DNA of 64,000 nucleotides from Rubrobacter calidifluminis (GTDB lineage Bacteria > Actinomycetota > Rubrobacteria > Rubrobacterales > Rubrobacteraceae): contig NZ_JAQKGV010000006.1 in NCBI RefSeq assembly GCF_028617075.1, positions 1 through 64,000 of the forward strand. Direction: 5' to 3'. Position numbers and translations under genes: made by a program. The notes beneath the pieces were generated by a model. The model saw only the letters and a program-made list of their open reading frames with translations, was not told the origin of the DNA and made no database searches. Positions 4,808 through 50,464 of this stretch are shown piece by piece. Position 1 is the first letter of the stretch; every line of letters starts with the position of its first letter.

Positions 4808-5585
4808 GGGTGGGGACCTCGCGTGGCTCGTCCCGGTCGGTGCGCTGGCGGGTGAGGGGGTCCTCTCCCTGGCACATCCGGGCATGGATCCCACCGGAGT
4901 TCTCTCGCTCGCCGCTCTGTTCGTCGGGGCCGGGGTGCCGGTCGCCGCGCGGGCTATCCTCTCGCGGGGGGATGGAGAGCGACGGATGCGCCGGGCGATC
5001 CGGCGCAGCGCGCGAGCCCTCGGGAAGGTCGCCCGCGAAGACCCCGTCGCCGCGCCGCAGGCCGGCCGTATCCTGAGGTTGCAGAGGACGCTGGTCGAAA
5101 GCTGGGAGAGCCTGCCGGCTGAGCAGCGCGCCATGCTCGCTGGAGAGGTCTTCTCCGTGGTCGAGGAGTTCGGCGAGGCCACGAGGCTTCTGCGCCGGAG
5201 AACGCTCCTCCGGCGCCATCTGCAGACCCTGGACCGGGAAGGCCTGCAGGGGCGGGTACGAAACCTGGAGCGAGACATCTCCGAGCTGCCGTATGATTCC
5301 GGGCTGCGGGAGGCTTTCGAGGAAACGCTCGCCGGGCGCCGGGAGGAGATGGCGGTGAGGGAAGAGCTCCTGGCGGGCGTGAGCTCTCTGAACGCCCGGA
5401 TCGAAGGGTTCGAGAGCCTGCTCGGTGGTCTGTGCGGGGAGCTCCTGACGCTCGACGAGGGGGTTGCCTCCGGGCGTCCGGACCTCGCCCGCATCAAGAG
5501 GCGTATCTCATACTTCAGGCGCAGCTTGGACGAGATCACACGCCAGATGGACCCTGCAAGCGACTCATCGATGGAGCCGATATAA
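4800..5585 (+). CDS. Membrane-hairpin coiled-coil protein, PspA partner candidate
   Basis: 261 residues from the GTG at 4800, chosen for its strong GAGGAGAGAGGAG Shine-Dalgarno and 8-nt overlap with pspA. Two hydrophobic segments near the N-terminus (about residues 7-25 and 30-50) are followed by about 200 residues of charged helices. I do not recognise a family. Position directly after PspA suggests a membrane anchor or sensor for it (inference). The next gene begins 1 nt after the stop. Confidence 0.65.
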   Translation: MGRGGDLAWLVPVGALAGEGVLSLAHPGMDPTGVLSLAALFVGAGVPVAARAILSRGDGERRMRRAIRRSARALGKVAREDPVAAPQAGRILRLQRTLVESWESLPAEQRAMLAGEVFSVVEEFGEATRLLRRRTLLRRHLQTLDREGLQGRVRNLERDISELPYDSGLREAFEETLAGRREEMAVREELLAGVSSLNARIEGFESLLGGLCGELLTLDEGVASGRPDLARIKRRISYFRRSLDEITRQMDPASDSSMEPI

Positions 5586-5586
5586 G

Positions 5587-6222
5587 GTGAGTGAGGAACG
5601 CGACAGGCAGAAGAGCTTTCTATCGAGGATCTTTTCGACCGGAGAGGAAGAGGAGACGATGGTCTTCTCCACCGAGGATTTCGAGTTCGAGGAGGTCGAT
5701 GAGCCCGAGGAGGCGCCCCCCCGCAGCAGCTTCACGGTCGAGCGAGCCGCCGAGATAATAAAGAGCCTGCCGGACGACGTGCCCCGGGAGAGCGCGGTGC
5801 GCATCGTGCGCCAGACGCTCGCCGCCGCAGGCATAGATATCGAGGAGCTGGCCCGCTCGGCTGACCGCAGGGAATCAAAGCTCAACTCCCGCATAGACCT
5901 CAGCCAGCGGCGCTCGGAGGAGCTGAAGAGACGCACCCGCGAGGTCATAAGCTCCCTGGAGGAGGAGATCCGCAAGGCCCGCGAGGCCCGGGACTTCGGG
6001 GTGAGCGAGGAGGAGAAGAAAATCTCCCAGGCGAGAGAGGGCCTCGCAGACGTCGCCCTGGTGCGTGAGTTCTTCGAGCTCTCCAGGACCGAGGAGGTGC
6101 CGGACGAAGAGCCGTCCGGTCCGGGGAGCTGGGACCAGGACGAGACGCAGATCATCGACCGGGAGAATCTGCGCGGCGGGCGTGGTGAAGGGGCCTCCGG
6201 GGAGGGAGAAGGAGGCCGGTGA
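5587..6222 (+). CDS. Acidic coiled-coil protein of the pspA operon
   Basis: 211 residues starting at GTG 5587, one base after the upstream stop. Acidic N-terminus, a helical core (residues about 55-175) with Arg/Glu-rich coiled coil, then a disordered tail containing DQDETQIID, a context similar to phospho-Thr sites in actinobacterial signalling proteins (inference only). No membrane segment. Function unknown. Its stop overlaps the GTG of the J-domain gene. Confidence 0.65.
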   Translation: MSEERDRQKSFLSRIFSTGEEEETMVFSTEDFEFEEVDEPEEAPPRSSFTVERAAEIIKSLPDDVPRESAVRIVRQTLAAAGIDIEELARSADRRESKLNSRIDLSQRRSEELKRRTREVISSLEEEIRKAREARDFGVSEEEKKISQAREGLADVALVREFFELSRTEEVPDEEPSGPGSWDQDETQIIDRENLRGGRGEGASGEGEGGR

Positions 6223-6668
6223 GCATCCCGCACCGCCTGGGTCGCCTGGCCCGGGGGTTCGTCTACACCCTGCAGGAGGATGAGCGCTTCGGGGAGAAGC
6301 TCCGGGTGGGGCGGGAGCGTGGCGAAGCCATAAAGAACGCCTTCGAGGCGGCCCTGCGGGGGGCCGCGGAGGAGTGGAGGAGAACCGGGGAGGAGGCGGG
6401 CGGTCGGACCCACCACTCCGGGCGTACCGCGACCACGACGTTCCGGCCCCGGCGTTACCCGCCCGAAGTGGCCGCTGCCTACCAGAAGCTGGGGTTGCAG
6501 GTGGGGGCACCGATGGAAGAGGTGAGCAGGAAGCGCCGCGAGCTGATAAAGCGTTTCCACCCGGACCGGTTCCCCGACGCGGACAGGCGCGCCCGGGCCG
6601 AGCGGCTCGCCGCCGAGATAAACGCATCCTACGACGTGATCTCCCGCCATCTCTCCCGGCGACGCTAG
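6219..6668 (+). CDS. J-domain (DnaJ-like) protein
   Basis: 149 residues. The C-terminal 65 residues form a J domain: YQKLGLQVGAPMEEVSRKRR, then the diagnostic HPD in KRFHPDRFPDA, then AEINASYDVI. J domains stimulate Hsp70 ATPase, so this protein probably brings DnaK to a specific client. The J domain is at the C-terminus; the N-terminal 70 residues are basic and helical and could bind the client. GTG start overlaps the previous stop (GTGA). The clustering with pspA suggests the client is the PspA assembly (inference). Confidence 0.85.
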   Translation: MSIPHRLGRLARGFVYTLQEDERFGEKLRVGRERGEAIKNAFEAALRGAAEEWRRTGEEAGGRTHHSGRTATTTFRPRRYPPEVAAAYQKLGLQVGAPMEEVSRKRRELIKRFHPDRFPDADRRARAERLAAEINASYDVISRHLSRRR

Positions 6669-6669
6669 A

Positions 6670-7293
6670 TTGCGGAACCCCGAGACCGAGAGGACGCGGC
6701 GCCTCTGGGAGAAGACCGCCCCGCACTACGACAGCGGGATCTCACCTTTCGAGCGCCTCTTCATCGGGGACGGGCGGCGATGGGTGTGCTCCCGTGCGGA
6801 GGGTGACGTCCTCGAGGTCGCCGTCGGCACCGGGCGCAATTTTCCCTTTTACCCCGCGGGGGTGAGCCTGAGCGCCGTGGACATCAGCCCGGCCATGCTC
6901 GCGGTGGCACGGGAGAGGGCAGGGTCGCTCGGGATGCGGGTGAACCTGGCCGAGGCCGACGCGCAGGCGCTGCCTTTCGAGGGCGAATCCTTCGATGCCG
7001 TGGTGAGCACGCTCGCCATGTGCAGCATACCTGACGAGCGTCTCGCCCTGCGGGAGATGAAGCGGGTGCTGCGCTCTGGAGGCAGACTGCTTCTGCTGGA
7101 CCACGTGCGCAGCACCTCACCGGTCGTCTTCTCTCTGCAGCGGGTGCTGGAGCCGCTCTCGGTCCGGTTCGCCGGGGACCATCTGCTCAGGCGCCCGCTG
7201 GAGCGGGTCGTCGAGCTGGGGTTCTCGGTCGAGGAGAGCCGGCGTTGCAGGAAAGGGATCGTCGAGATGCTCGCGGCACGAAAACCAGTTTAG
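6670..7293 (+). CDS. Class I SAM-dependent methyltransferase
   Basis: 207 residues. Rossmann motif I VLEVAVGTGRNFPFY, motif II region AVDISPAMLAVAR, and ALPFEGESFDAVVSTLAMC as in UbiE/Methyltransf_11 enzymes. TTG start 1 nt after the J-domain stop; no strong Shine-Dalgarno. Last of the plus-strand run, and its end overlaps the sortase end by 4 nt (convergent). Substrate cannot be deduced. Confidence 0.85.
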   Translation: MRNPETERTRRLWEKTAPHYDSGISPFERLFIGDGRRWVCSRAEGDVLEVAVGTGRNFPFYPAGVSLSAVDISPAMLAVARERAGSLGMRVNLAEADAQALPFEGESFDAVVSTLAMCSIPDERLALREMKRVLRSGGRLLLLDHVRSTSPVVFSLQRVLEPLSVRFAGDHLLRRPLERVVELGFSVEESRRCRKGIVEMLAARKPV

Positions 7294-7883
7294 GAGCTTA
7301 CGAGCTCGCCGCGGACGATGAGCCGGTACTGGAAGGTGGGGATCGGGGTGCAGGTCTGCAGCGAGACTGTCGTCCTGCCGGGCACCGGGTAGGTGACCCA
7401 GTAGTCGTCCGGGCGGACGATGATGCGATCGTAGACCCTGAAGGTGTAGGTCTTGCCGCCACGCTCTATGACGATCCTGTCGCCCGGCTTCATCTTGTTC
7501 AGCCTGTAGAACGCGTAGGGGGTGCGCGTCCAGAGGTAGCCGAGGCGGTGCCCGACGATGAACGTGTTCGACCCCTTCTGCCAGGGGTAGCCCGTCCCCG
7601 AGAGGTGCATGATGCCTATCTTGTCGAGCTCCGACTGGGTGGAGCCGTCGGGGACCGGGACGTCCTTGAGGCCCAGGCGCGGGATCGAGATCTTCATCAC
7701 CGTGGGCCCCACCCCACCGCCCGCAGGCCTCGTGCCCGCCCCCTCGCCGAGCAGTCTCTGGGGCTGAGCCTGGGGGTGTATCTCCGTCGAGGCCGTCTCG
7801 GTGCGGGGGAAGATCGGCAGGAGGGCGAACACGACGAGCCCGAGCGCCACGACGATCACTGAGACTCTCAAGCTGGTGAACAC
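7290..7883 (-). CDS. Class E-like sortase
   Basis: 197 residues. N-terminal signal-anchor (VSVIVVALGLVVFALL), Pro-rich linker, then a sortase domain with catalytic His112 (IVGHRLGYLW), Cys178 (VSLQTCTPIPTF) and Arg187 (YRLIVRG). Sortases join LPXTG-type proteins to the cell wall or polymerise pili. Start placed at GTG 7883: TATAAT at 7891-7896 on the minus strand is 7 nt upstream, so this looks leaderless; longer in-frame starts would lie inside the promoter. No LPXTG substrate gene is adjacent, so it is probably a housekeeping sortase; the prophage protein at 48515-48958 carries an LPNTG signal it could use. Confidence 0.9.
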   Translation of the reverse strand: MFTSLRVSVIVVALGLVVFALLPIFPRTETASTEIHPQAQPQRLLGEGAGTRPAGGGVGPTVMKISIPRLGLKDVPVPDGSTQSELDKIGIMHLSGTGYPWQKGSNTFIVGHRLGYLWTRTPYAFYRLNKMKPGDRIVIERGGKTYTFRVYDRIIVRPDDYWVTYPVPGRTTVSLQTCTPIPTFQYRLIVRGELVSS

Positions 7884-9131: not shown

Positions 9132-9208
9132 GGTTGGCCCCGTGTACAAAAATCGTCGGGAGACACCCTGAAAGGGGAGAGTCGACTAGCAACCTGATTG
9201 TTACCGGC

Positions 9209-9237
9209 TTGTAATTTGCATCTCGCTCGTGTAAAAA
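9209..9237 (+). promoter_or_regulatory. Candidate gltBD promoter
   Basis: TTGTAA (9209-9214), 17-nt spacer, TAAAAA (9232-9237), about 45 nt before the gltB start, in an unusually AT-rich gap. No riboswitch fold seen. Confidence 0.5.
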
Positions 9238-9281
9238 TTTGGCTCCACCCGTAGGCCCAGCGAGCATTGGGGAGGCGACTT

Positions 9282-13759
<4,478 letters not shown>

Positions 13760-17650: not shown

Positions 17651-17721
17651 TGCCGGGTGGTGTAACGGCAGCACGGCTGACTCTGGATCAGCTAGTCCTG
17701 GTTCGAATCCAGGCCCGGCAG
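17651..17721 (+). tRNA. tRNA-Gln (anticodon CTG)
   Basis: 71 nt. Acceptor strands TGCCGGG and CCCGGCA pair fully; anticodon stem GCTGA/TCAGC encloses loop CTCTGGA, giving anticodon CTG; T-loop GGTTCGAATCC is canonical. CCA is not encoded. Its 3' part is the prophage integration site; the sequence supplied on the prophage side restores an intact gene. Confidence 0.95.
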
Positions 17722-17725
17722 CTCC
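17674..17725 (+). repeat. attL core (52-bp direct repeat)
   Basis: Identical to 50348-50399. Covers the anticodon arm to 3' end of tRNA-Gln plus a few bases (ends GGCAGCTCC). Typical integration target for tyrosine integrases. Confidence 0.93.
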
Positions 17726-17727
17726 TC

Positions 17728-17754
17728 AAAAGCCTCCGTTTGCGGGGCTTTTTT
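17728..17754 (+). terminator. Intrinsic terminator after tRNA-Gln
   Basis: Stem AAAAGCCTC / GGGGCTTTT with a 7-nt loop and a run of six T (17749-17754). Lies just inside the prophage, so the phage brings a terminator for the reconstituted tRNA; the A tract also makes it work in the opposite direction for leftward prophage transcripts. Confidence 0.75.
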
Positions 17755-44613: not shown

Positions 44614-45372
44614 TTGGGTATTCTGATCTCCCTTTTTATAAGGATGATGTTGCTCCCGTTGTTTATTGGTCTATGGCTCTTGAGAGTTCTTCTGCATACC
44701 GGGGTTCATTTTGCTTTCTCCCTGAAGAAAGGTTCTCGCCTGTCGAGGCGCAGGAGAAAAACGGGAGACGGTTCGACAGCGAAGGTATTGCTAGCTGTCA
44801 TCGTAGGGCTTGGTCTTTTCGGATACAACGTATGGCTTGGGCTGTTTTACAGCTTCCTGCTTGCAGGGTATCTGATCCTCAAGAGCAGGCCTCCCAGGAC
44901 ACCAGAAGCCCGTGAGCTGCTCGGGATGCTGGAGCAGGTACCGAACATGAACGGTGAAGCGTTCGAGGACTACGTAGCGCTCATCTTTAGAACACTCGGT
45001 TACCCGCGCGTGCTGGGGCTCGGCGGCTCCGGGGATCAGGGTGTGGATATCATCATCGAGGACAACACCGGGCACCGCGTAGCCATCCAGTGCAAGAACT
45101 ACAAAAGAGCTGTTGGCAACAAGCCCGTCCAGGAAGTCTACGCTGGCATGCGTCACCATGAGTGTGATGAAGGGTGGGTCGTAGCCCCACAGGGATTTAC
45201 AGCTGGAGCGTACGAGATAGCTTCCTCCACGGGCGTGAAGCTCTTTGACCGCAGGTCGATTCTCGCCTGGATTAGGATGATAGATGAACGCGAGCGAAAG
45301 GAGCAACAGGAGAAAGAAGGCGAGCAGAGAACAGCCAGCGCGGGTCATCCATTCGAGACCGGGAAATCCTGA
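44614..45372 (+). CDS. Membrane-anchored Mrr-like restriction endonuclease
   Basis: 252 residues. Two membrane regions in the first 90 residues flank a basic stretch (SLKKGSRLSRRRRKTG), then an Mrr_cat/PD-(D/E)xK domain: NGEAFEDYVALIFRTLGY, GGSGDQGVDIIIEDN, VAIQCKNYKR and VQEVYAGMRHHECDEGWVV. Putative catalytic Asp and QxK are present. TTG start; lower GC and less biased codons than neighbours, and its own terminator follows, indicating later acquisition. Possibly an anti-phage cargo gene. Confidence 0.75.
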   Translation: MGILISLFIRMMLLPLFIGLWLLRVLLHTGVHFAFSLKKGSRLSRRRRKTGDGSTAKVLLAVIVGLGLFGYNVWLGLFYSFLLAGYLILKSRPPRTPEARELLGMLEQVPNMNGEAFEDYVALIFRTLGYPRVLGLGGSGDQGVDIIIEDNTGHRVAIQCKNYKRAVGNKPVQEVYAGMRHHECDEGWVVAPQGFTAGAYEIASSTGVKLFDRRSILAWIRMIDERERKEQQEKEGEQRTASAGHPFETGKS

Positions 45373-45462: not shown

Positions 45463-46149
45463 ATGGCTGCATTCGCAGGTAAACTGGGCCGGATCGTTGG
45501 TCCCGAGGACCAACGAGATTACCGGCTCCAGGAATTCATGGCCTACGGCGAGGCCACGAGCAAGCTCGAGGGCGACGTGGGTTGGGGCTATAGAGGTTTC
45601 CCCGTACTGGATCAGGAGCGTGAGGGAGCATGCACGATGTTCTCCACGTGCAACGCAGCCAACGCCCTGCCACACAAGAAAAATCTCACCTCGCAGGATG
45701 CCTTCGACGGCTATCACGCTGTTACGGAGTGGGATGAGATCCCCGGCTCCTGGAAGAGCAACCCCCCGCAGGAGGGAGCCATCCCGAGAGACGCCTGCAA
45801 GGAAGCCAAAAAGCGCGGCTGGATCAACACCTACGCCTTCGAGTACGACGTGAACGCGATTCTGGCGTGGCTCTTGGGCCACGGTCCAATCATCCTCGCG
45901 CTCGACTGGTACTCGGGCTATGACAATCCCGGCCCCGACGACACCATAGAGCGCTCGGGCTACGTGCGCGGCGGTCACGCCATCTGCGTGATCAGAGCTC
46001 AGGTGGGTGTAGGCCCCGTGGACCGCGTACGCCTCAAGAACTCGTGGGGCGGGATGTGGGGCAAGAACGATTATGCCTGGATGCCGGTGTCGCTCCTGTC
46101 GTGGGTCATGAAGAACCCCAACAGCACGGCGATCGCCATCGTGGACTGA
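45463..46149 (+). CDS. Papain-like (C1 family) cysteine protease
   Basis: 228 residues with the papain catalytic set: Gln51 and Cys57 (LDQEREGACTMFSTCNA; same 6-residue spacing as in papain), His172 (VRGGHAICVI) and Asn193 (LKNSWGGMWG). No signal peptide or propeptide is evident. C1 proteases are uncommon in phages of bacteria; roles could be wall-protein cleavage at lysis, entry, or head maturation. Strong AGGAG upstream; own cistron after the terminator. Confidence 0.8.
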   Translation: MAAFAGKLGRIVGPEDQRDYRLQEFMAYGEATSKLEGDVGWGYRGFPVLDQEREGACTMFSTCNAANALPHKKNLTSQDAFDGYHAVTEWDEIPGSWKSNPPQEGAIPRDACKEAKKRGWINTYAFEYDVNAILAWLLGHGPIILALDWYSGYDNPGPDDTIERSGYVRGGHAICVIRAQVGVGPVDRVRLKNSWGGMWGKNDYAWMPVSLLSWVMKNPNSTAIAIVD

Positions 46150-47189: not shown

Positions 47190-47501
47190 TTATTCCCATT
47201 CGTGTGGGTTTTTAACTTCAGGGATCTTGCGGGTCCTTTTAAATTCTTCATACCGAGCTTTTGCGTTTCTAACCCATCTCTCTATACGCTCAGGTTCTGC
47301 GAATTGTCCGTTAAGATACACCATGACGGCTCTTTTAGCCGTTTCCTCCTTGTCATCATAAGGACAGATCTTAAAAAGAGTCTTACCCGGCACATATCCC
47401 TTCTGTATGCTCTCGATCTCTCTTGCAACGGTGTATATCCATGGTCTCATATACAGTTGACCTTTGTTGTCCTTATCCAACTCAATGAGATAGCAAGTCA
47501 T
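47190..47501 (-). CDS. Hypothetical prophage cargo protein
   Basis: 103 residues, minus strand, lower GC than its surroundings. MTCYLIELDKDNKGQLYMRP, KGYVPGKTLFKICPYDDKEE, charged C-terminus. No recognised domain. Opposite to the late genes, so probably expressed in the lysogen. Confidence 0.5.
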   Translation of the reverse strand: MTCYLIELDKDNKGQLYMRPWIYTVAREIESIQKGYVPGKTLFKICPYDDKEETAKRAVMVYLNGQFAEPERIERWVRNAKARYEEFKRTRKIPEVKNPHEWE

Positions 47502-47518: not shown

Positions 47519-48508
47519 TCATCGTTTTGCCGCTCGATATCCTGCAGCCTCGGCATCCTGCGGTGTGGCGTAGCACCTCACCGGGGTAGTTTCGTCGTAA
47601 TATGCACCACCTGGCACATGGTAGATCCCCGACTGGTTGGCTTTCACCGGGTATCCTGGCGGGCAGTCGTACTTCGTGGCTGGCGGCACGCCACTCGCAG
47701 CTGATCCCGCAGGCTGGGAGCTGGCCGGGCTTTGTGGTACTGGCGGAGGGCTGCTCGTGAGAGCGGTAGAGCACCCGCCTCCTATCCCGTTTCCTCTATC
47801 GGTTTCCTGGCAGAGCTGGCTAGGCGGGAGTCCCCAGAGCCCGCGTCCTTCTGCCCGGGCCTGTCTCTGGGCCGCCAGAAAGCGATCCACGTACTTCACG
47901 TTTGGCGGGAACGTTGCCACCTGCGCGTATCCTTGCCTGACGAGTACCTCGTTGAACATCGTGTTCGGAGAGGTCCACACATAGGCCAGTAGACGGCCGT
48001 ACGGGTCCACTTTCTCCACGTCGGTTTCGAGAGCCACCTTCTTCCCCAACAGATGAGAAGTGGTGAAGTCCGCCGCCTGTGGGCCATAGGGTTGCACAGG
48101 TGTTCCTGGCTTGTGGGTCTCGGGCGTATCCACGCCGATCAACCGCACGTCGGTGAGGCCATCTATCGGTGGTGAGATGTAGATCGTATCTCCATCCACC
48201 ACGCGAGTCACGGTCACCACCGTCCCCCTGGAGGCCAGCCCGGAGGCCGGCGTATGGGGGGAGCTCGCCGGCTTGCTGTTTGCCGCTGGAGCAGAGCTCG
48301 CCGGCGTTTTCCGGTGTGTGGCCGGTGGGGTGTGCCTTACAGTGTGTGTTGTGGCCGGCTTTGCACTCGCCCCGCTACTGCTCTTGGCCTGCACTGTTGC
48401 GCTGCTTGAGACGGACGGTGAGCTACTGGATGAAACGGCGCCCTGCTCCGAGCACCCGGTGAGGAGCGCGAGGAGCAGGGCTACCAGTGCAGGCAGGAGC
48501 TTTTTCAC
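47519..48508 (-). CDS. Secreted staphylococcal-nuclease-like lipoprotein
   Basis: 329 residues from GTG. Lipoprotein signal with lipobox LLTGC (Cys19), a Ser/Thr/Pro linker of about 70 residues, then a thermonuclease domain: VVDGDTIY, VRLIGVDTPETH (Arg122, Glu130), DPYGRLLAYVW (Arg172), all at SNase spacing. The C-terminal 45 residues (CPPGYPVKANQSGIYHVPGG and RCYATPQDAEAAGYRAAKR) form a small metal-binding-like module (Ada/'sunset' type, from memory). An extracellular, surface-held nuclease encoded by the prophage against the direction of late genes. Confidence 0.85.
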   Translation of the reverse strand: MKKLLPALVALLLALLTGCSEQGAVSSSSSPSVSSSATVQAKSSSGASAKPATTHTVRHTPPATHRKTPASSAPAANSKPASSPHTPASGLASRGTVVTVTRVVDGDTIYISPPIDGLTDVRLIGVDTPETHKPGTPVQPYGPQAADFTTSHLLGKKVALETDVEKVDPYGRLLAYVWTSPNTMFNEVLVRQGYAQVATFPPNVKYVDRFLAAQRQARAEGRGLWGLPPSQLCQETDRGNGIGGGCSTALTSSPPPVPQSPASSQPAGSAASGVPPATKYDCPPGYPVKANQSGIYHVPGGAYYDETTPVRCYATPQDAEAAGYRAAKR

Positions 48509-48514
48509 TGTGTG

Positions 48515-48958
48515 TTAGCTTCGCCTCGCCAAGATCATGAGCAGAGCGCCTGCAGCGAGAACCCCGGTGCCGATCGGAAGCAGCAAGCTCGGCCCGCCGG
48601 TGTTGGGAAGCGGCAGGTTCCCGCCGGCGTTCAGGGCTGTCCCGGTGGACGGCGTAGAGTATTGTTGCGCGGCTGGCGTGCTGGATGCCGGAGTGCTCGT
48701 AGCGGGTGTGGAGCTCGTCGGAGAACTCGCCGGAGCGCTGCTGCCACCTGGCAAGCTCTCGCAGGCTATCCCGTCGTGGTCGGCATCGAGGTTGTCGAAG
48801 TTATTTGAGGCACTGCCGCCATGTGCGTCGAAGTACGCCTGTGCCTGCTGTTGAGTTGCAAAGTCCGAGCAGTCTTTATCCGGCTGTGCCAACACTGCTG
48901 GAGCAAAAACTAGCATCGCCAGTGCACAAAGTGCACTGAGATATACTAACCTCCTCAT
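48515..48958 (-). CDS. LPXTG-anchored Excalibur-domain surface protein
   Basis: 147 residues. Signal peptide (MRRLVYLSALCALAMLVFAP), Excalibur calcium-binding domain with Cys30 and the DxDxDG loop (LDADHDGIACE, Asp58-Asp62, Cys66), a Ser/Thr/Pro wall-spanning linker, and an LPXTG sorting signal: LPNTG at 117-121, hydrophobic helix, RRS tail. Six nt upstream of the SNase lipoprotein and clearly cotranscribed. Excalibur domains are often fused to extracellular nucleases; here both parts are separate but adjacent. Confidence 0.85.
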   Translation of the reverse strand: MRRLVYLSALCALAMLVFAPAVLAQPDKDCSDFATQQQAQAYFDAHGGSASNNFDNLDADHDGIACESLPGGSSAPASSPTSSTPATSTPASSTPAAQQYSTPSTGTALNAGGNLPLPNTGGPSLLLPIGTGVLAAGALLMILARRS

Positions 48959-49076
48959 ATCCCTCCCTTCGATTCCTGCCTGCCTACTGGCATTCTATGA
49001 GTGCCGGGTTTCCAGGGTCAAGAGCCAGGTGGCCAAACTTCTTGCGAGCGCTCGCACTGTTCGGGAAAATGAGCGC

Positions 49077-50264
49077 ATGGCTAGAGCAAACGGGGAAGGG
49101 AGCGAGCCGCGCCGGAGGAAAGACGGACTATGGCAGTCGAACTACACCGTCTATATTGACGGTAAGCGCAAGCTCAGGAGCGTATACGGGCGTACAAAGA
49201 ACGAGTGCCGCAAGAAGCTCAGGGAGAAGCTGGCTGAGCGTGATGGCGGGATCGTCTTTGACACGAAGAACCTCACCGTTGCCGAGTACCTGGACCGCTG
49301 GCTGGCGTGGTTCAGGGTCCGCGCCAGGAGCGTGCGCACCTACGACGACTACGAGTATGTCATCAGGTGCCACGTCCATCCCGAGCGCATCGGACGTCTC
49401 AAGCTGGACAGGCTGACCGGGGCACATATAGACGAGCTCTATGCTGCCAAGCTTCACTCGGGCCTCTCCAGCGAGACGGTCCTGCACGTCCACAGGACCC
49501 TGAGGCGCGCGTTCAACCAGGCCGTGCGCTGGAGGATGATACCTCGCAATCCGGTCCTCGACGCCACGCCCCCGCCGAAGAGGAAGCGCCCGGCAACAGT
49601 GCTCTCCGGTGAGCAGGTCCTCCAATTCATTGAGCGGGCGGGAACGCGCCGGCTTTTCCCCCTCTACGTCCTTGACGCACTCACAGGTCTGAGAAGCGGG
49701 GAGATTCTGGGGCTTTCCTGGGAAGACCTCTCGCGCGACGCCGAAGGTCCGCTACTTCGGGTCCACAGGCGCCTGCTGAGCTCCTCCGAGGGCGTCAGGC
49801 TCGTGGAAGGTACGAAGACGGGCGCCGGCATGACTGTGAGGCTGCCGGAGCTTGGCGAGGCGGTCCTGCGCATACACCGCAAGCGACAGCTCGAAGAGAG
49901 AATGCGCGCGGGGCCAGCCTGGCGGGAGACGGGCTTGATCTTCACCACCCGTCGCGGCGGGTGGATACATCCCAACAACGTCTCCGGCTACCTGCGCAAG
50001 GACCTCGAGGCTGCGGGGCTACCCCCGGTCCGCTTCCACGATCTCAGACACTCACTGGCCACCATCATGGCCCTCGACGGTGCACACGTCGCCGTCGTCG
50101 CTGGTATGCTCGGGCACGCGAGCCCCACCACCACCCTCAACACCTACACTCACTTCGTGCCCGGCATGCAGGCCATGGCCGTCAAGCGCCTCAACGAGCT
50201 CTTTCCGGCCTCCTTGGTCGCCGATCTCGAGGATTTGCCTGATCTCTCTCAGGAGCCGTCCTGA
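49077..50264 (+). CDS. int: Phage tyrosine integrase
   Basis: 395 residues. N-terminal arm-binding region (RKDGLWQSNYTVYIDGKRKL), SAM-like core-binding domain (TVAEYLDRWLAWFRVRARSV), catalytic domain with all residues: Arg (TGLRSGEI), Lys (VEGTKTGAG), HxxR (FHDLRHSLATI), His (LGHASPTTT) and Tyr (LNTYTHF). Start at ATG 49077 fits integrases; GTG 49029 would add 16 residues. Its stop is 83 bp from attR. Confidence 0.93.
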   Translation: MARANGEGSEPRRRKDGLWQSNYTVYIDGKRKLRSVYGRTKNECRKKLREKLAERDGGIVFDTKNLTVAEYLDRWLAWFRVRARSVRTYDDYEYVIRCHVHPERIGRLKLDRLTGAHIDELYAAKLHSGLSSETVLHVHRTLRRAFNQAVRWRMIPRNPVLDATPPPKRKRPATVLSGEQVLQFIERAGTRRLFPLYVLDALTGLRSGEILGLSWEDLSRDAEGPLLRVHRRLLSSSEGVRLVEGTKTGAGMTVRLPELGEAVLRIHRKRQLEERMRAGPAWRETGLIFTTRRGGWIHPNNVSGYLRKDLEAAGLPPVRFHDLRHSLATIMALDGAHVAVVAGMLGHASPTTTLNTYTHFVPGMQAMAVKRLNELFPASLVADLEDLPDLSQEPS

Positions 50265-50347: not shown

Positions 50348-50399
50348 CGGCTGACTCTGGATCAGCTAGTCCTGGTTCGAATCCAGGCCCGGCAGCTCC
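50348..50399 (+). repeat. attR core (52-bp direct repeat)
   Basis: Exact copy of 17674-17725; a 3' tRNA-Gln fragment lacking the 5' acceptor and D arm, so not a functional tRNA. Marks the right prophage end. Confidence 0.93.
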
Positions 50400-50464
50400 C
50401 TGAAAGAGGCCCGCGACCGGAGGTGCGGGCTGCCGTCCTCTGCTCCAGGCGGCGTCGAGCGGCA

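What the first reader, a model, noticed from the sequence alone, without database searches (positions are those of the whole stretch)
47519..48958. Lysogenic-conversion pair: secreted SNase lipoprotein plus LPXTG Excalibur protein
A lipid-anchored nuclease with intact Arg122/Glu130/Arg172 and a wall-anchored calcium-binding Excalibur protein form a minus-strand operon next to int, opposed to late genes. Excalibur and SNase domains are often fused, so the two may act as one split surface nuclease. The host sortase at 7290-7883 could anchor the second. Possible roles: degrading DNA of incoming phage or feeding on external DNA.
Basis: partly seen in the sequence, partly recalled or inferred. Interest (0 to 1): 0.65.

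Follow-up and report, generated by a model that had tools for sequence, protein, structure and literature searches.

The report
Prophage-borne surface DNase gene pair
A dormant virus in a heat-loving Rubrobacter-type bacterium carries two genes for cell-surface proteins, one a DNA-cutting enzyme held in the membrane and one a calcium-binding protein with a cell-wall anchor signal, which probably destroy loose DNA at the cell surface; it is a new variant of a trick already known from other viruses such as Bacillus SPbeta.

Summary
Inside a complete, tRNA-Gln-integrated prophage (att repeats 17674/50348), a minus-strand pair lies between endolysin and integrase: an LPNTG-anchored Excalibur protein (48515-48958), then 6 nt later a lipoprotein staphylococcal-type nuclease (47519-48508) with every catalytic residue. 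(1) The nuclease's C-terminus is a 'sunset' domain (NF051437). (2) The same genome holds a second pair in a second, mosaic-related prophage with a different (serine) integrase; there the nuclease has an Excalibur domain where the window's has sunset. (3) A third prophage, in a sister genome, keeps the nuclease (80-85% identical, intact) but its Excalibur gene is deleted to a 20-codon in-frame scar. All three copies are transcribed away from int behind a sigma70-like promoter and are under strong purifying selection. The 'split nuclease' idea is therefore disfavoured, and the sortase at 7290 is one of eight and not specially linked. The best reading is a lysogenic-conversion surface DNase of the SPbeta YokF kind that degrades external DNA, most plausibly limiting transformation (which YokF does in B. 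subtilis); phosphate scavenging and superinfection exclusion are not excluded. New variant of a known kind.

The parts
17651..17722 (+). tRNA-Gln(CTG), integration site; left attachment repeat 17674-17732
   Evidence: ARAGORN; 59-nt direct repeat, 95% identical to 50348-50406
50348..50406 (+). right attachment repeat (tRNA-Gln 3' copy), right end of prophage
48515..48958 (-). secreted, LPNTG-anchored Excalibur protein, 147 aa
   Evidence: PF05901 31 bits; paralog 87-88% identical in second prophage; dN/dS 0.057
48758..48877 (-). Excalibur Ca-binding domain (DxDxDGxxCE loop)
48596..48610 (-). LPNTG sorting motif
   Evidence: translation, alignment
47519..48508 (-). lipoprotein staphylococcal-type nuclease, 329 aa
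   Evidence: PF00565 100 bits, phrog_20876 nuclease 127 bits, NF047694 149 bits (below its cut-off of 250)
48452..48463 (-). lipobox LTGC (Cys19)
   Evidence: translation; invariant GC in alignment
47834..48148 (-). SNase catalytic domain
   Evidence: catalytic residues
47525..47647 (-). C-terminal sunset domain (replaced by Excalibur in the C11 paralog)
   Evidence: NF051437 55-59 bits, cut-off 27
48992..49021 (-). sigma70-like promoter TTGACC-18-TAGAAT upstream of the pair
   Evidence: TTGACC-18-TAGAAT in the C11 copy, TTGTGT-17-TAGAAT in the G002 copy
47190..47501 (-). 103-aa ORF 17 nt downstream, possible third gene of the transcript; not conserved in the two related prophages
   Evidence: no family, no homolog
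49029..50264 (+). tyrosine integrase, divergent from the pair
   Evidence: PF00589 69 bits
46172..46972 (+). amidase-SPOR endolysin, last large late gene, convergent with the pair
   Evidence: PF01510, PF05036

Best explanation
A lysogenic-conversion cassette. From its own promoter in the repressed prophage it places a membrane-tethered, Ca-dependent, sugar-nonspecific SNase on the outside of the lysogen, together with a wall-anchored Excalibur protein. The nuclease cuts double-stranded DNA reaching the wall-membrane space. The most likely selective value to the prophage is limiting natural transformation, which could replace the lysogenic locus with an empty one, as reported for SPbeta YokF and for integrated-element DNases of Campylobacter and Vibrio. 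The Excalibur protein is an accessory (a wall-side Ca-folded docking or spacing module), not an essential half of the enzyme. Shown here: anatomy, prophage location, intact catalytic residues, conservation, promoter-like sequence, dispensable partner. Inferred: expression in lysogens, export, activity, anti-transformation benefit.
For: Complete prophage with att repeats. Same cassette between integrase and amidase, divergent from int, in two prophages of one genome with unrelated integrases, plus a third prophage. Prophages are mosaic: C11 shares head genes (portal 71%, major head protein 82%), G002 shares tail genes, all three share the nuclease. dN/dS 0.05-0.08 in the SNase domain, 0.03 in sunset, 0.06 in Excalibur. 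Promoter hexamers kept while the spacer diverged. Catalytic residues intact. Independent phages place tethered SNases in the lysogeny module: AP45 and A403; SPbeta YokF is a prophage lipoprotein SNase; IMG/VR contigs with SNase 7-900 nt from an integrase. YokF lowers transformation about tenfold and Campylobacter/Vibrio element DNases by 2-3 orders (PMC4774983). Host encodes comEA-comEC, dprA and PilB/PilT-type ATPases.
Against: No proof that this organism is naturally transformable (ComEC, DprA and T2SSE-type ATPases also occur in many control genomes including E. coli). The host has chromosomal SNases of the same kind (C15 solo SNase-sunset lipoprotein, 52%), so the function may simply duplicate a host nutritional nuclease. 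No expression or activity data.
Confidence: 0.5

Rival explanations
1. Nutritional moron: the surface nuclease lets the lysogen harvest phosphate and nucleosides from environmental DNA, benefiting host and prophage together.
For: SNase-type surface nucleases do this: YhcR with NucA/NucB reclaims eDNA phosphate in B. subtilis (PMC11458576); the SNase lipoprotein Hvo_1477 supports growth on DNA and yokF/yncB deletion reduces it (PMC3929857). Host-chromosomal paralogs in the genus.
Against: No nucleotidase or phosphate gene in the cassette; host already has such nucleases; placement beside integrases in unrelated phages suggests a benefit tied to lysogeny.
Confidence: 0.25
2. Superinfection exclusion: the tethered nuclease cuts DNA of other phages as it crosses the wall-membrane space, or the surface proteins block injection like Ltp.
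For: A surface lipoprotein encoded by a temperate phage is the hallmark of Ltp-type exclusion proteins (PMC3952083, abstract); the CbpL protein combines Excalibur with an Ltp domain (PMC5137146).
Against: No Ltp domain (PF07553) in either protein. Phage DNA is normally shielded by the injection channel (general knowledge). No defence-system model on the Excalibur protein; the SNase matches only the candidate PADLOC model C3a212 SNc+LTD.
Confidence: 0.15
3. Two-component 'split' surface nuclease: the Excalibur protein is required for nuclease activity or localisation.
For: Excalibur fused to SNase in many relatives, LPxTG-Excalibur immediately upstream of SNase in at least three lineages (roughly 0.01 expected by chance), one ORF with Excalibur then SNase in a single protein (L153).
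Against: SNase domain complete; third prophage keeps an intact nuclease with the Excalibur gene deleted; genus-wide solo SNase-sunset lipoprotein on the chromosome.
Confidence: 0.1
4. Passenger host genes with no benefit, picked up by imprecise excision.
For: Homologous genes exist on chromosomes of the family.
Against: dN/dS 0.03-0.08 over the conserved domains, presence in three mosaic prophages with conserved promoter hexamers.
Confidence: 0.05

Closest known systems
YokF of Bacillus phage SPbeta
   Same: Prophage-encoded lipoprotein with SNase domain and a linker to a small C-terminal extracellular domain; near one end of the SPbeta record (5582-6472 of 134416); reported to lower transformation (PMC4774983)
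   Different: YokF ends in Excalibur, the window protein in sunset; YokF has no LPxTG-Excalibur partner gene beside it; only about 39% identity, confined to the SNase region
SNase-Excalibur membrane proteins of Aeribacillus phage AP45 and Anoxybacillus phage A403
   Same: Surface-tethered SNase in the lysogeny module beside the recombinase
   Different: Apparent transmembrane rather than lipid anchor, Excalibur fused, no separate anchored partner
Prophage streptodornases (Sda/Spd) of streptococci
   Same: Secreted prophage DNase as lysogenic-conversion gene (PMC4774983); location between lysin and attachment site is my recollection, not tested
   Different: Unrelated nuclease family, freely secreted (from memory)
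YhcR of B. subtilis
   Same: SNase-type surface nuclease; Ca-dependent eDNA degradation (PMC11458576, PMC3929857)
   Different: Chromosomal, itself sortase-anchored
Ltp of Streptococcus thermophilus phage TP-J34
   Same: Temperate-phage surface lipoprotein (PMC3952083)
   Different: Not a nuclease; Ltp domain absent here

Membership tests
Staphylococcal nuclease family (SNase, PF00565) | Family profile above curated cut-off | tested here: met
   100 bits against cut-off 21
Staphylococcal nuclease family (SNase, PF00565) | Catalytic and Ca ligands (S. aureus D21, R35, D40, T41, E43, R87) | tested here: met
   D107, R122, D127, T128, E130, R172
Staphylococcal nuclease family (SNase, PF00565) | Ca-dependent nuclease activity | not testable with these tools
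   needs protein
Excalibur (PF05901) | Two conserved Cys and DxDxDGxxCE loop | tested here: met
   C30, D58, D60, D62, G63, C66, E67; motif definition from PMC5137146
Excalibur (PF05901) | Ca-dependent folding | not testable with these tools
   shown for CbpL (PMC5137146), not for this protein
Sortase substrate (LPxTG) | Signal peptide, LPxTG, hydrophobic stretch, positive tail | tested here: met
   LPNTGGPSLLLPIGTGVLAAGALLMILARRS; same layout in relatives
Sortase substrate (LPxTG) | Match to a curated anchor model | tested here: inconclusive
   only weak hits below cut-offs
Bacterial lipoprotein | Lipobox with invariant Cys after signal peptide | tested here: met
   LTGC19; Cys conserved in C11 and G002 copies
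sunset domain (NF051437) | Profile above curated cut-off | tested here: met
   55 bits against 27
YokF-type SNase-Excalibur lipoprotein | C-terminal Excalibur on the nuclease itself | tested here: not met
   window nuclease has sunset there; C11 paralog does have Excalibur
YokF-type SNase-Excalibur lipoprotein | Encoded by a prophage | tested here: met
Ltp superinfection-exclusion lipoprotein | Ltp domain PF07553 | tested here: not met
   no hit
Mobile-element transformation-inhibiting DNase | Reduces transformation of the carrier | not testable with these tools
   analogy to YokF, Dns, IdeA (PMC4774983)

The most novel reading that the evidence does not exclude
A phage-spread two-protein surface device in which the wall-anchored, Ca-folded Excalibur protein docks or licenses a membrane-tethered nuclease whose own tail (sunset or Excalibur) is an interchangeable docking module, so that Ca in the environment gates a lysogen's DNA-entry barrier.
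Probability: 0.12. Interest if true: 0.6.

Novelty: new variant of a known kind. Interest (0 to 1): 0.36.

Why it matters
Temperate phages repeatedly acquire surface DNases beside their integrase. This case adds two prophages in one thermophilic actinobacterial genome carrying the same nuclease plus a wall-anchored Excalibur partner, a swap between sunset and Excalibur tails, and a natural deletion of the partner. That makes the unknown role of Excalibur and sunset domains testable by comparing natural variants, and adds a lineage to the idea that mobile elements police DNA uptake by their hosts.

Tried and rejected
Split nuclease: rejected as main reading because of the G002 scar and the complete SNase domain. 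Sortase 7290 as a dedicated partner: rejected, 8 sortases in the genome and it lies outside the prophage. Third ORF 47190-47501 as a conserved cassette member: not found in either related prophage. Excalibur protein in cultured phages: only one relative in the phage collection, itself an SNase fusion; the single-protein viral scan found none, the alignment scan found 14. Sunset fold: AlphaFold model (mean pLDDT 77) matched best the E. coli Ada N-terminal domain in three entries, but at E about 2, not significant; Pfam Ada_Zn_binding is also weak (E 0.035). No paper on the sunset domain in the library. Integrase proximity in viral contigs (15 of 80 SNase ORFs within 4 kb; 5 of 8 of those carrying Excalibur or sunset) has no background rate and many contigs are cut, so it is descriptive only. 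The adjacency expectation is a rough count-based estimate.

Full report
Observation. 48515-48958(-) encodes a 147-aa secreted protein with one Excalibur domain (PF05901, 31 bits against 22) and an LPNTG sorting signal. 47519-48508(-) starts 6 nt further on and encodes a 329-aa lipoprotein (LTGC19) with a staphylococcal nuclease domain (PF00565, 100 bits against 21). D107, R122, D127, T128, E130 and R172 are present and align with the active-site blocks of S. aureus nuclease. The Excalibur protein has both conserved cysteines and the complete DxDxDGxxCE loop, the features shown by NMR to fold on Ca in CbpL (PMC5137146).

They match NCBIfam NF051437, the sunset domain, at 55 bits against a cut-off of 27. 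I found no paper on this domain. A predicted structure resembled only the Ada N-terminal domain, without significance.

Setting. The element is a complete siphophage-like prophage: terminase, scaffold, major head protein, tape measure, amidase-SPOR endolysin, tyrosine integrase. It is bounded by tRNA-Gln (17651-17722) and a 59-nt direct repeat at 17674 and 50348. The pair is convergent with the late genes and divergent from int.

A second and a third copy. The same genome has a second pair on contig C11 (L036:8734-9198 and 9207-10166, +), again between a recombinase and an amidase-SPOR gene. That prophage uses a serine recombinase, shares head genes with the window prophage (portal 71%, head protein 82%) but not most tail genes, and its nuclease ends in an Excalibur domain where the window's ends in sunset. 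A sister MAG (G002, Rubrobacteraceae bacterium HOT.MB2.74) carries a third prophage sharing tail genes with the window prophage. Its nuclease-sunset lipoprotein is 80-85% identical overall and 94% in the nuclease domain, with the catalytic block intact. Directly upstream, where the Excalibur gene should be, a 20-codon reading frame (MRRLIYLAAGDLHMIVARRR, L089 about 2813-2875) joins the first and last few codons of the Excalibur gene in frame. The partner was lost and the nuclease kept. This is a MAG, so an assembly artefact cannot be fully excluded.

Selection and expression. Between prophages the SNase domain shows dN/dS of 0.05-0.08, sunset 0.03, Excalibur 0.06. In the 70 nt between the pair and int there is a TTGACC-18-TAGAAT promoter-like sequence. 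The C11 copy has the same hexamers and spacing and the G002 copy TTGTGT-17-TAGAAT, while the spacer sequences have diverged. This fits expression from the prophage itself, independent of the late genes; expression was not measured.

Is the pair a real association? In 39 Rubrobacteraceae genomes an LPxTG-Excalibur gene (or LAxTG in L087) lies immediately upstream of an SNase gene on the same strand in the prophage cassette and in two further loci (L045, L087), where the rough chance expectation is 0.01. Excalibur is also fused to SNase in many proteins of the family and of viral contigs, once as Excalibur followed by SNase in one chain (L153). So the two domains do belong together functionally. 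But solo SNase-sunset lipoproteins are found on all three chromosomes of the genus, and the scar shows that the nuclease persists without the partner.

Phage parallels. SPbeta YokF is a lipoprotein with SNase and Excalibur domains. Phages AP45 and A403 of thermophilic bacilli carry membrane-anchored SNase-Excalibur proteins between repressor and recombinase. In IMG/VR, 15 of the 80 SNase ORFs examined lie within 4 kb of an integrase or recombinase, several within 100 nt; there is no background rate for this. L194 and L228 are viral SNase-sunset proteins.

Mechanism. Shown: an intact, surface-directed, prophage-borne nuclease gene under purifying selection with its own promoter-like sequence. 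Inferred: the enzyme is exported, lipid-anchored, Ca-dependent, and cuts double-stranded DNA at the cell surface. [quoted passage not shown] The host has comEA-comEC, dprA and PilB/PilT-like ATPases, which is permissive but not proof of competence. Harvest of phosphate from DNA (PMC11458576, PMC3929857) and superinfection exclusion (PMC3952083) remain open.

Verdict. Observation confirmed, interpretation partly supported. This is a new variant of a known kind: a YokF-like prophage surface nuclease with a separate wall-anchored Excalibur partner and an exchangeable tail domain.

Noticed in passing
L036:3966-4730 and L290:13715-18000 (G000 contig C11): The second prophage (about 47 kb, serine recombinase) is inserted at the 3' end of a cas6 gene and separates it from cas8/cas7/cas5/cas3-like genes. 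The empty site is seen in sister genome G001 (L297), and G002 (L296) has another element at exactly the same point, so this cas6 end looks like a recurrent attachment site. Cas names are by eye and gene order, not by a family search.
   Followed up: partly
L089:1-193 (G002 contig C155): The contig with the third prophage begins in a cas6 fragment (codons about 128-152) just outside its tyrosine integrase, while an intact cas6 lies on another contig; a second cas6-targeting element or a mixed population.
   Followed up: partly
L089:4132-4542: Secreted protein resembling a lamin-tail domain between the nuclease and the late genes of the third prophage; the window SNase also matches the PADLOC model 'SNc+LTD'. 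LTD assignment is by eye.
   Followed up: no
window 44614-45372 and 45463-46149: Late-operon Mrr-type restriction nuclease (PF04471, 96 bits) and a papain-like protein, both 93% identical in the G002 prophage; the Mrr gene is absent and the papain-like protein diverged (31%) in the C11 prophage.
   Followed up: partly
L087:3602-4255, L088:778-1200, L045:4356-4631, L044:5475-6020, L097:603-1409: A family of HTH-like regulators recurs beside chromosomal Excalibur and SNase loci of Rubrobacteraceae.
   Followed up: partly
L131, L132, L135: SNase proteins that themselves end in LPETG sorting signals in related genomes.
   Followed up: no
L274/L223 (IMGVR_UViG_3300017553_000001): Viral contig with two paralogous secreted proteins in tandem 57 nt apart, one ending in Excalibur, the next SNase-Excalibur.
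   Followed up: partly
window 47525-47647: Sunset domain shows weak, non-significant resemblance to the Ada N-terminal DNA-repair domain in both sequence and predicted fold.
   Followed up: partly
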